Shown: piece by piece, positions 31,342 through 33,663 of the stretch | Numbering within the stretch: position 1 is the first letter of the stretch | Layout: the number at the start of each line of letters is the position of its first letter | Source of the DNA: Rathayibacter sp. VKM Ac-2879 | GTDB taxonomy: Bacteria > Actinomycetota > Actinomycetes > Actinomycetales > Microbacteriaceae | Assembly: GCF_015351245.1 (NCBI RefSeq) | Contig: NZ_JADKSO010000004.1 | Location: forward strand, 248,001-312,000 | DNA: 64,000 nucleotides | Reading direction: 5' to 3' | Program-made: the position numbers and the translations under genes | The notes under the pieces: model-generated | Databases searched by the model: none | Told to the model about the DNA's origin: nothing | The model's input: only the letters and a program-made list of their open reading frames with translations

Positions 31342-32046
31342 TCAGAACAGGTCGGGGCTCGGAGTCGAGGCGTAGCGGATGGCGACGTCGGCGTGGCGAT
31401 CGAAGCGGTAGCCGGCGCCGCGAACGGTGCGGACGATGTCCTCGTAGCGGCCGAGCTTGGCGCGGAGGCGACGCACGTGCACGTCGATGGTGCGCTCGTT
31501 CGGTGCGTCGTCGTCCGCGGCACCCCAGAGGGAGGCGATCAGCTCGGCGCGCTCGATCGTGCGTCCCTCGCGCAGCACCAGGTACTGCAGCAGCTCGAAC
31601 TCCTTGTAGGTCAGGGCGGTCGTCTCGTCGTCGAGGATGACGCGCTTGCGTGAGATATCGATGACGACTCCGCCCGGCGCGCGGTCGAGGTCGGGCTCGA
31701 CCTCAGCGCGTCGGCGCGCGACGGCGGCGGGGTCCTGGAGGGCGAGGCGGACGACGTCCACGTCGCGCCCGCCGGCGCCTTGGGGGGCGAGGGCGACGGA
31801 GGCGTAGGTCTCGGCGTCGGGAGCGAGCAGGGCGGTGACGCGCTTGAGCTCTTCGACGAGGCGGCCGAGATCGACACCTGCCGCGCGCGCCTTCGCCTCG
31901 TCGATTCCGACGTAGAGCGCGAAACCGCGGGCTTCGGTGCCCTGGGGGACGGCGCGCAGACGAGGCTGGACGGGAGCGGTCTCGGCGACCTGGAGGCGGG
32001 GGGTCTCGATCGTGGAGACGGTGGGGCGGGCGTGGAGGAGAGTCAT
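31342..32046 (-). CDS. OmpR-type winged-helix regulator lacking a receiver domain
   Basis: A 234-residue protein. Residues about 130-225 are an OmpR/PhoB winged helix: GVVIDISRKRVILDDE, LTYKEFELLQYLVLREGRTIER, LWGAADDDAPNERTIDVHVRRLRAKLG and VRTVRGAGYRFD. The first 125 residues are not a phosphoacceptor receiver: no DD pair or phospho-Asp/Lys pattern is seen. This part has ARGFALYVGIDEAKARAAGVD and might sense something else. A good AAGGA site lies 6 nt before ATG 32046. Its 215-bp leader holds a duplicated 12-mer and, further upstream, a 33-codon ORF. The target genes are unknown. Confidence 0.85.
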   Translation of the reverse strand: MTLLHARPTVSTIETPRLQVAETAPVQPRLRAVPQGTEARGFALYVGIDEAKARAAGVDLGRLVEELKRVTALLAPDAETYASVALAPQGAGGRDVDVVRLALQDPAAVARRRAEVEPDLDRAPGGVVIDISRKRVILDDETTALTYKEFELLQYLVLREGRTIERAELIASLWGAADDDAPNERTIDVHVRRLRAKLGRYEDIVRTVRGAGYRFDRHADVAIRYASTPSPDLF

Positions 32047-32063
32047 GACGAATCCTTGGACTG

Positions 32064-32101
32064 GTCGGATCCGGGACGAGTGTCCGGGAGTCGGATCCGG
32101 G
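32064..32101. repeat. Duplicated 12-bp site (GTCGGATCCGGG) in the leader of the winged-helix gene
   Basis: GTCGGATCCGGG occurs at 32064-32075 and again at 32090-32101, 26 bp apart, each containing the palindrome CGGATCCG. They sit 18-55 bp upstream of the regulator ATG (32046). OmpR-type regulators often bind direct repeats, so autoregulation is plausible. A separate 8-bp hairpin, GCGGATGC-AGA-GCATCCGC, is at 32145-32163. Confidence 0.55.
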
Positions 32102-32261
32102 TGTGCGCAATCGAGCCGTGTCCGCGAGACGCGGACCGGCAGAGGCGGATGCAGAGCATCCGCGGGATCCTTCGAGCCGTCGACGCCCGTCCGATCGAGA
32201 TCGGCCCGATCAGGAAGATCGGAGGGCGGAGGCTGAGCGAGGAGCCGGCGAGGTCAGTGCC

Positions 32262-32363
32262 TCATGCACACATTCGACAGCTCATGACGAGGCCGCCGGC
32301 CATCATCATGCCGGCATTCCCGATGGCCTCGAGGGAGGTCAGGGCGTGCGCGTTGTCAGTCAT
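32262..32363 (-). CDS. Putative 33-aa Met/Cys-rich small protein, leaderless
   Basis: The ORF reads MTDNAHALTSLEAIGNAG, then MMMAGGLVMSCRMCA and TGA. It has six Met and two Cys (a CxxC: CRMC) in 33 residues and a hydrophobic centre. 27 of 33 codons end in G or C, matching coding DNA here. There is no ribosome-binding site, but a promoter (TTGACG, 18 bp, TTTACT) places the transcript start at or one base before the ATG, so translation of a leaderless mRNA is likely; this is common in actinobacteria. It lies 215 bp upstream of a winged-helix regulator on the same strand. No homologue comes to mind. It might be a metal- or redox-sensing peptide, a regulatory leader ORF or a non-coding coincidence. 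Confidence 0.5.
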   Translation of the reverse strand: MTDNAHALTSLEAIGNAGMMMAGGLVMSCRMCA

Positions 32364-32400
32364 GGGGGACAGTAAAGCGGACTGTGACGTCCTGCGTCAA
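32364..32400 (-). promoter_or_regulatory. Promoter of the small ORF with two overlapping dyads
   Basis: On the minus strand, -35 TTGACG (32400-32395) and -10 TTTACT (32376-32371) are 18 bp apart, ending 7 nt before the ATG at 32363. TGACGTCCTGCGTCA (32385-32399) is a dyad covering the -35, and ACAGT-N7-ACTGT (32369-32385) covers the -10. Two operator-like dyads on one short promoter suggest tight regulation. Confidence 0.5.
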
Positions 32401-32464
32401 TATGTTTCCTTGCTGGCGAGGGGCCCGTCTTCTGGGGGTCCCCGGTCCCTCGTGCGCCGCGGTC

Positions 32465-33100
32465 TCAGCCCGCGAGGCCGTAGAGGCGGTCACCCGCGTC
32501 GCCGAGACCGGGGACGATGTAGCCGAGCTCGTTGAGCCGTTCGTCGAGCGAGCCGAGGACGATGGTCACGTCGCGGTCGCCGAACGCCTTCTCGACGGCG
32601 GCGAGCCCCTCCGGAGCCGCGAGCAGGCAGACCGCTGTCACATCGACGGCACCGCGATCGAAGAGGAACCGGATGGCTGCGATGAGAGAGCCTCCCGTGG
32701 CCAGCATCGGGTCGAGGACGAAGCACTGGCGGTTGGAGAGGTCCTCGGGCAGACGCTCGGCGTAGGTGGTGGGCTCGAGGGTCTCCTCGTTGCGCGCCAT
32801 GCCGAGGAAGCCGACCTCGGCGGTCGGTATGAGCTTGACCATGCCCTCGAGCATCCCGAGGCCCGCGCGCAGGATCGGCACGACGAGAGGCTGCGGATCG
32901 CTCAGGGCGAGGCCAGTGGTCTGCGTCACCGGCGTCTCGATGGTGACGGGACGGGTGCGGACGCCGCGCGTCGCCTCATAGGCGAGGAGGGTCATCAGCT
33001 CCTCGGCGAGTTGCCGGAAGGTGGGGGAGGGGGTGCGCTTGTCGCGCAGCACGGTGAGCTTGTGCGTGATTAGCGGATGGTCGGCTACGTGGACGCGCAT
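32465..33100 (-). CDS. upp: Uracil phosphoribosyltransferase
   Basis: A 211-residue PRTase. Motifs: [18 protein letters not shown] at the N-terminus, [11 protein letters not shown] in the middle, the PRPP loop [16 protein letters not shown] near residue 130 and [15 protein letters not shown] at the C-terminus, all standard for UPRT. It salvages uracil to UMP. ATG 33100 is chosen because [10 protein letters not shown] is the conserved start of the family; upstream sequence in frame is unlike it. Divergent from tadA, with 86 bp between. Confidence 0.96.
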
Positions 33101-33186: not shown

Positions 33187-33663
33187 ATGCGCGAGAGCGA
33201 CCTGCCCGCACCCGTCGGCTCCGAGGGCTGGATGGCGATCGCGCTCGACGAGGCGCGGCGGGCCGCCCAATGGGGTGACGTCCCCGTCGGCGCGGTCGTG
33301 GTGGACGCCTCCGGAACCGTGATCGGCCGGGGCCGCAACGAGCGCGAGCTGACGCGCGATCCCACCGCTCACGCCGAGGTCGTCGCGCTGCGCGCCGCCG
33401 CCTCCGCCCGGGGCGACTGGCAACTCGTGGGCTGCACCCTCGTCGTCACGCTCGAGCCCTGCGTCCTGTGCGCGGGCGCGATCCTCGCGGCCCGCATCGA
33501 CCGCGTCGTCTTCGGGTCCTGGGACGAGAAGGCGGGAGCCGCCGGATCGGTGCACGACCTCCTGCGCGACCGTCGGCACAACCACGTGGTCGAGGTGTAC
33601 CCGGGCGTGCGTGCCGAGGAGGGCTCGCGCCTCCTGCTCGACTTCTTCGCCGCTCGCCGGTGA
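33187..33663 (+). CDS. tadA: tRNA-specific adenosine deaminase
   Basis: A 158-residue zinc-dependent deaminase. The zinc/catalytic motif [10 protein letters not shown] (His-x-Glu) is near residue 61 and PCVLCAGAI (Cys-x-x-Cys) near 90. TadA converts A34 to inosine in tRNA-Arg(ACG). Length and motifs are normal. Start ATG 33187 is supported by GGAGGAG directly upstream. It is an essential enzyme in most bacteria. Confidence 0.95.

What the first reader, a model, noticed from the sequence alone, without database searches (positions are those of the whole stretch)
32262..32400. Leaderless 33-aa Met/Cys-rich ORF under a double-dyad promoter
A short ORF with coding-like third positions (27 of 33 G/C), six Met and a CRMC motif begins right where transcription would start. 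Its promoter bears two separate dyads over the -35 and the -10. It lies upstream of a receiver-less winged-helix regulator on the same strand. Together they look like a regulated small-peptide switch, possibly for metal or redox signals, and I know of no described family.
Basis: partly seen in the sequence, partly recalled or inferred. Interest (0 to 1): 0.7.

Follow-up and report, generated by a model that had tools for sequence, protein, structure and literature searches.

The report
Conserved leader peptide gating a regulator
A 33-codon mini-gene, kept throughout one family of soil- and plant-associated bacteria, sits just ahead of a gene-control protein and probably works as a ribosome-driven switch for it, perhaps sensing a shortage of cysteine; the type of switch is known, but this family of it seems new.

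Summary
The frame 32262-32363 (-) has a counterpart just upstream of the same winged-helix regulator in 80 of 80 Microbacteriaceae loci, a profile hit in 147 of 199 family genomes, and a diverged copy in 13 of 13 fetched genomes without a hit. A TTGAC-like box lies 36-37 nt before the start in 74 of 80 copies, as for a leaderless mRNA. The tail carries the constraint: an Arg codon that is always CGA (80 of 80; 3% background), followed by ATG and four codons before the stop in 135 of 138 copies (126 of 129 without repeats), with two or more Cys in 133 of 138. After the stop the RNA turns C-rich and G-poor and folds better than shuffles; in parts of two outgroups it pairs with the tail. I read it as a leader peptide whose stalled ribosome turns the regulator on; Cys-tRNA shortage is my favoured cue (about 0.4). 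Metal/redox sensing and the second dyad are not supported. Leaderless Cys-rich leader ORFs are known; this family, its target and the CGA rule appear undescribed.

The parts
32395..32400 (-). -35 box TTGACG
   Evidence: Sequence; exact TTGAC in 72 of 81 copies within 30-42 nt of the start, 0.5 expected
32385..32399 (.). dyad TGAC-N7-GTCA over the -35, possible operator
   Evidence: In 23 of 80 relatives; the same stretch is flagged terminator-like on the + strand
32371..32376 (-). -10-like TTTACT, 7 nt before the ATG
   Evidence: T/A-rich columns -13 to -7 over 81 copies; no consensus promoter by strict scan
32262..32363 (-). probably leaderless small ORF, 33 codons plus stop: leader peptide
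   Evidence: Counterpart in 80 of 80 loci; profile hit in 147 of 199 family genomes
32325..32342 (-). codons 8-13, block constrained at nucleotide level (CTG ACC TCC NNN GAG GCC)
   Evidence: CTG 65/66, ACC 61/62, TCC 54/56, GAG 74/74; role unresolved
32271..32276 (-). core CGA-ATG, CGA four codons before the stop
   Evidence: CGA 80 of 80; position in 135 of 138, or 126 of 129 without repeated loci
32265..32282 (-). Cys/Arg/Met tail (window: S-C-R-M-C-A)
32047..32261 (-). leader between small ORF and regulator, C-rich and structured
   Evidence: C-G in the top 3.7% of window stretches; ORF plus leader folds at z = -4.1; 79 family leaders, mean z -1.73
32053..32057 (-). AAGGA, likely ribosome-binding site of the regulator
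   Evidence: Sequence; an (A/G/T)AGGA before a start was the rule by which 79 of 81 leaders were delimited, so it is not independent evidence
31342..32046 (-). OmpR/PhoB-type winged-helix regulator with a small uncharacterised N-terminal part
   Evidence: Pfam Trans_reg_C 8.5e-22; best PDB sequence match 8hig; AlphaFold2 confident for the C-terminal domain only

Best explanation
The ORF is a leader peptide, not a working protein. Transcription starts at its ATG and the ribosome loads on the bare 5' end (inferred from promoter spacing). If the ribosome reaches the stop and leaves, the C-rich leader is exposed and the ORF's 3' end can pair with the leader, in some lineages with the ribosome-binding site, so the regulator is off through Rho termination and/or masking (inferred). 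If the ribosome pauses on the slow stop-proximal codons (TGY TGY CGA ATG TGY), it shields that RNA and the winged-helix regulator is made. The most likely cue is a shortage of charged Cys-tRNA (about 0.4); slow decoding at CGA and ligand-triggered arrest are the main alternatives. Shown: conservation, codon constraint, fixed distance to the stop, change of C/G balance, structured leader. Inferred: translation, stalling, direction of control, cue.
For: Frame kept in 80 of 80 family loci (these were found through the regulator, so adjacency there is by construction). Independent adjacency: in 33 of 33 loci found through the ORF itself (4 by peptide; 29 by profile) the regulator match starts 182-464 nt after the stop on the same strand (13 of the 33 repeat loci of the first set). 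Leaderless spacing. CGA 80 of 80 against 3.1% background; TGT 66 of 72. CGA four codons before the stop in 135 of 138, two or more Cys in 133 of 138. Mean C-G goes from -0.11 in the last 30 nt of the ORF to +0.21 in the next 30; the leader is in the top 5% of its locus in 76 of 78. Folding z above zero in only 3 of 79. Tail complementary to the leader in parts of two outgroups, with compensating differences between L163 and L168. No intrinsic terminator on this strand. TGTTGYCGAATGTG occurs once in 40 of the 41 genomes that have it (80 searched), so it is not a many-site operator.
Against: No expression, ribosome or 5'-end data. In Microbacteriaceae the tail matches the leader only weakly better than shuffles (11 of 79 at p<=0.05; control segments 0 and 3 of 79) and the ribosome-binding site no better (2 of 79). 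Cys before CGA is Arg in L138, L144, L145, L147, L157 and L189, and L046 has no Cys in the tail, which weakens the Cys cue. Rho is inferred from composition; C-G is also +0.18 early in the ORF and the regulator's own start is C-rich in 78 of 79. 7 of 23 second-group loci have the regulator without such an ORF, and in L147 the GTG frame and the motif frame disagree. In speF's leader, rare and frequent Arg codons behaved alike (PMC6386406 passage), against a slow-codon role. G111 has an ORF hit but no regulator hit, possibly a contig end.
Confidence: 0.62

Rival explanations
1. Arrest peptide of the TnaC/SpeFL type: the nascent tail ...(C/R)-R-M-x-x blocks termination at the stop codon when a small molecule binds the ribosome tunnel, and the parked ribosome keeps Rho off the C-rich leader.
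For: Fixed distance of R-M to the stop (135 of 138); C-rich RNA from the stop on; precedents of such size (PMC6386406 passages; PMC8429421 listing with the start of its abstract).
Against: A nascent-chain arrest needs Arg, not the codon CGA, yet CGA is invariant. L046 keeps CGA but loses Met and Cys from the tail. No ligand is known.
Confidence: 0.17
2. General slow-decoding or translation-stress sensor centred on CGA, for instance limited inosine-34 on tRNA-Arg or a ribosome-targeting drug, rather than cysteine.
For: CGA is invariant although it has synonyms. Cys is replaced by Arg in several lineages. tadA, whose product makes I34 (recalled), is two genes away in 73 of 80 loci. A uORF answering several antibiotic classes is known (PMC12121999 abstract).
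Against: Does not explain two or more Cys in 133 of 138. tadA-upp may be an old neighbourhood without regulatory meaning. CGA and CGC pairs behaved alike in speF's leader.
Confidence: 0.13
3. CGAATG and its surroundings are an RNA pairing or protein-binding site, and the ORF is translated only incidentally.
For: Synonymous constraint at CGA and at codons 8-13; TCGAATGC has two complementary GCATTCGA-type copies in several second-group leaders.
Against: Third bases of the neighbouring Cys codons vary T/C, lengths vary by whole codons (25-45), and the distance to the stop is fixed.
Confidence: 0.05
4. One reading: the peptide itself binds a metal or senses redox through Met/Cys.
For: Met and Cys are frequent in the family's copies.
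Against: Tail Cys falls to 1 or 0 in some copies; MMM is missing in 18 of 81 and MM in 9 of 81; the codon-level constraint is not explained.
Confidence: 0.03

Closest known systems
Leaderless polycysteine sORF attenuators of mycobacteria (Canestrari 2020, not held, known here only as cited in PMC9031893; Cys-rich uORFs in PMC4633059, passages)
   Same: Leaderless short ORF with Cys codons, control of the downstream gene, Actinobacteria.
   Different: Target here is a winged-helix regulator; mostly one or two Cys in a row; a CGA-ATG core four codons before the stop; the window's two Cys are separated by R-M.
Cys leader peptides of Mycobacterium, P. acnes and B. longum predicted in 2005 (PMC1262725, passages)
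   Same: Runs of Cys codons near the stop, no conserved terminator hairpin, Rho proposed.
   Different: Upstream of cys or cbs genes; no CGA-ATG rule in the passages seen.
TnaC and SpeFL/orf34 (PMC8429421 listing; PMC6386406 passages)
   Same: Short leader ORF; for orf34, Rho and masking of the ribosome-binding site.
   Different: Enterobacterial; no kinship seen by eye (no alignment run); orf34 has its own Shine-Dalgarno.
uORFC-8-2 ahead of cysS in Rhodobacterales (PMC8632094, passages)
   Same: uORF with conserved tandem Cys codons.
   Different: Intrinsic-terminator-like end and a tRNA-synthetase target.

Membership tests
Leaderless polycysteine attenuators (mycobacterial type) | Start codon at the transcript 5' end | tested here: inconclusive
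   Spacing fits in 74 of 80 and a pyrimidine precedes the start in 79 of 81 copies; no 5'-end data
Leaderless polycysteine attenuators (mycobacterial type) | Cluster of Cys codons close to the stop | tested here: met
   Two or more Cys in the tail in 133 of 138; the window has 2, not adjacent
Leaderless polycysteine attenuators (mycobacterial type) | Downstream cysteine or sulfur genes | tested here: not met
   The regulator is downstream in 33 of 33 loci found through the ORF; hence 'works like', not a member
Leaderless polycysteine attenuators (mycobacterial type) | Expression answers to cysteine | not testable with these tools
   Needs reporters
Classical intrinsic-terminator attenuator | G+C hairpin with T run in the leader | tested here: not met
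   None on the - strand of window 31900-32500; relatives not scanned
Rho-dependent leader-ORF control | C-rich, G-poor RNA after the ORF | tested here: met
   composition only, and shared by the regulator's start
Rho-dependent leader-ORF control | Termination lost when Rho is inhibited | not testable with these tools
   Needs an inhibitor experiment
TnaC/SpeFL-type arrest peptides | Ligand-dependent arrest at or near the stop | not testable with these tools
   Only the fixed distance to the stop was seen
Known RNA or protein families | Match in Rfam, Pfam or NCBIfam | tested here: not met
   No ORF hit in Pfam at E<=0.001 or NCBIfam at E<=1; no Rfam hit in the window at gathering score or in five relatives up to E=1
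OmpR/PhoB winged-helix regulators | Trans_reg_C domain | tested here: met
   no receiver domain match there

The most novel reading that the evidence does not exclude
An old, nearly universal switch of Microbacteriaceae and related families whose trigger is a synonymous-locked CGA-AUG pair set four codons before the stop of a leaderless ORF, so that decoding of one codon (or inosine-34 supply, with tadA in the same locus) sets the level of a core regulator that is kept even in 1.1-1.4 Mb genomes (leader itself seen in 1.2 and 1.4 Mb ones, L198 and L201).
Probability: 0.2. Interest if true: 0.8.

Novelty: new variant of a known kind. Interest (0 to 1): 0.56.

Why it matters
A regulator found in 193 of 199 sampled family genomes, small ones among them, appears to be set by a leader ORF that matches no family library searched here. 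It would extend leaderless leader-peptide control from metabolic operons to a widely kept transcription factor, give a handle on that factor's unknown signal, and make the CGA codon rule directly testable. It also shows how an ORF too short for annotation can be recognised by conservation.

Tried and rejected
Rejected: (1) chance ORF (frame kept in 80 of 80 loci); (2) metal/redox peptide (see rivals); (3) a many-site operator: TGTTGYCGAATGTG is found in 41 of 80 genomes, once in 40 of them, twice in G068; reversed-pattern control 1 hit. I compared only a few of these sites with the ORF positions; those agreed; (4) a universal pairing of the ORF end with the ribosome-binding site: 2 of 79 at p<=0.05. 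ATTCGAC occurs somewhere in the leader of 14 of 79 against a mean of 1.9 in shuffles, but this may be one inherited lineage; (5) a hairpin at codons 9-13: intact in 59 of 81 against 25.5 in synonymous resampling, without convincing compensation, left open; (6) clade-wise RNAalifold: energies below column shuffles, but that control is easy to beat and the structures differ between clades; (7) regulator structure: mean pLDDT 68.8, N-terminal part poor; fold search not obtained.

Limits: the 80 loci are the best 80 of 291 confirmed matches. In one search other pattern hits in the same loci were dropped for lack of CRM at the ORF's place. L046, L074 and L080 were read by hand. Leaders were cut at the first (A/G/T)AGGA-led start, so some ends may be wrong; L017 and L046 gave none. 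9 of the 29 loci L087-L115 repeat loci of the first set exactly.

Full report
WHAT IS THERE. The order is a tadA-like deaminase gene (33187-33663, +), then on the minus strand upp (32465-33100), the small ORF (32262-32363), a 215-nt leader (32047-32261) and a winged-helix gene (31342-32046). Gene names rest on Pfam and sequence. The nearest locus found is Rathayibacter sp. Leaf185 (L001, best segment 94% identical in the regulator). No genome is held for the window.

IS IT REAL. Their titles name genera that I recall as Microbacteriaceae, or MAGs and a marine isolate labelled Microbacteriaceae, Micrococcales or Actinomycetota. A counterpart of the small ORF lies just upstream in all 80: 77 by pattern, and L046, L074 and L080 by reading. 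L074 has an insert in the tail, L080 runs past the usual stop, and L046 has lost Cys and Met from the tail (D-R-R-R-P-R-A, the last of the three adjacent Arg still CGA). A profile of 31 of these peptides hits 147 of 199 family genomes at E<=0.01, once in 144 and twice in 3. The regulator hits 193 of 199 genomes of the family; G111 has an ORF hit but no regulator hit. From the genomes with a regulator but no profile hit I fetched 13; all 13 have an in-frame CGAATG ORF at the place, and 10 of the 13 also show a TTG(A/C)-box at leaderless distance (not L196, L197, L201). L138 likewise has in-frame CGAATG. In 33 of 33 loci found through the ORF the regulator follows on the same strand. tadA-upp-regulator order is seen in 73 of 80 loci; I did not check why 7 lack it.

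LEADERLESS. A -35-like box lies upstream in 80 of 81 copies, exact TTGAC in 72 (0.5 expected); its distance to the ATG is 36 or 37 nt in 74 of 80 (35 in 3, 38 in 2, 42 in 1); position -1 is a pyrimidine in 79 of 81. That is what a start at the A of ATG requires. A strict promoter scan of the window finds nothing. The dyad over the -35 recurs in 23 of 80 relatives, the dyad over the -10 in none.

WHERE THE CONSTRAINT LIES. Over 80 copies anchored on CRM (79 loci and the window; L046 left out), Arg is CGA in 80 of 80, against 3.1% of Arg codons in the regulators; the Cys before it is TGT in 57 of 80; the residue before that is Cys in 72, with TGT in 66. The regulators contain no Cys, so there is no Cys background from this set; that TGT is rare in G+C-rich genomes is recalled. 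Codons 8-13 are also locked beyond the amino acid (ACC 61/62, TCC 54/56, GAG 74/74), while codon 13 keeps Ala with four synonyms, so both peptide and RNA seem constrained. Over four sets (80 of 81, 29 of 29, 14 of 14, 15 of 16 readable) CGA lies exactly four codons before the stop in 135 of 138, and 133 of 138 have two or more Cys in the tail. Nine loci of the second set repeat the first; without them the counts are 126 and 124 of 129.

BEYOND THE FAMILY. In 297 genomes of the order the regulator has 74 hits at E<=1e-25, the weakest of which cover only the DNA-binding part; in 296 genomes of the class 17 at E<=1e-35. Among 23 second-group loci (regulator 49-54% identical, L139-L161) 16 carry an upstream ORF with in-frame CGAATG, typically GTG-started and ending RCCRM(H/Q)A or close to it. 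7 do not: L140 (whose CGAATG lies in another context), L141, L151, L153, L154, L156, L161. In L147 the GTG frame and the motif frame disagree. In the third group 5 of 7 loci have a leaderless-looking ORF whose tail holds Arg, Met and Cys (L162-L164, L167, L168; CGAATG only in L163 and L164), and 2 do not (L165, L166). L169 shows none.

THE RNA. Mean C-G is -0.11 in the last 30 nt of the ORF and +0.21 in the next 30, and stays positive; it is also +0.18 early in the ORF (positions -90 to -61). The leader ranks in the top 5% of its own locus in 76 of 78 cases. The regulator's first codons share the bias in 78 of 79, so composition alone is not excluded. ORF end plus leader folds with mean z -1.73, below -2 in 30 and above 0 in 3 of 79; the window's ORF and leader z -4.1. 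In the third group the ORF tail has an exact complement of 9-11 nt in the RNA after it (p<=0.02) in 4 of 5, beginning at the last base of the TGC codon; L163 and L168 differ there by compensating changes; L167 gave p 0.12. In the second group runs of 7-11 nt reach p<=0.05 in 6 of 11 (11 of the 16 ORF-bearing loci could be delimited). In Microbacteriaceae the signal is weak: 11 of 79, with control segments 0 and 3 of 79. No intrinsic terminator is seen on this strand, and no Rfam match.

HOW IT PROBABLY WORKS. A leaderless ORF whose slow stop-proximal codons sit at the edge of a C-rich, foldable leader is the layout of ribosome-controlled attenuation. Precedents seen: Cys leader peptides with Rho proposed (PMC1262725, passages); Cys-rich uORFs of mycobacteria (PMC4633059, passages); Cys-responsive leaderless ORFs (Canestrari 2020 as cited in PMC9031893, passages; the paper itself not held); orf34 ahead of speF, whose translation counters Rho and unfolds a structure over the ribosome-binding site (PMC6386406, passages); toiL (PMC12121999, abstract and outline). 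I put the leader-peptide switch at about 0.8 as a class, the Cys cue at about 0.4, and the composite statement, read mainly as the class with a stop-proximal stall, at 0.62.

WHAT DOES NOT FIT. CGA is more constrained than any Cys, and Cys becomes Arg in several lineages. That argues for a codon- or RNA-level role of CGA-ATG that a plain Cys attenuator does not need. In orf34, however, rare and frequent Arg codons acted alike. tadA in the same locus is suggestive only.

NOVELTY. Searches listed no title on this ORF, but most lists were cut (for example 15 of 204 and 15 of 348 papers), and subscription journals are mostly not held, so absence is weak evidence. I file it as a new variant of a known kind.

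Noticed in passing
L163, L164, L165, L167 upstream regions: PhoB-box-like direct repeats (TGTCAT/TGTCAC about every 10-11 bp; TGTTAC copies about 22 bp apart in the second group) stand near the promoter. With the PhoB-like recognition helix (PhoB box recalled) this suggests autoregulation. Not tested statistically.
   Followed up: no
window 33187-33663 and 73 of 80 loci: tadA, whose product makes the inosine used to read CGA (recalled), is two genes from a leader ORF with an invariant CGA codon.
   Followed up: partly
L194: The sORF carries an in-frame tandem expansion (LMMPV repeated), so middle length is free while the tail is kept.
   Followed up: no
L201, genome G016 of 1.4 Mb: Tail reads DMCACRMCCCC, the most Cys-rich copy seen, in a reduced genome.
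   Followed up: no
window 31693-31962 (regulator residues 29-118): The regulator's N-terminal part is conserved but matches no Pfam domain at E<=0.001; AlphaFold2 gives a low- to medium-confidence strand-helix-helix-strand piece.
   Followed up: partly
L046: The tail has turned Cys and Met into Arg/Pro yet keeps CGA four codons before the stop; no AGGA-led regulator start was found behind it.
   Followed up: partly
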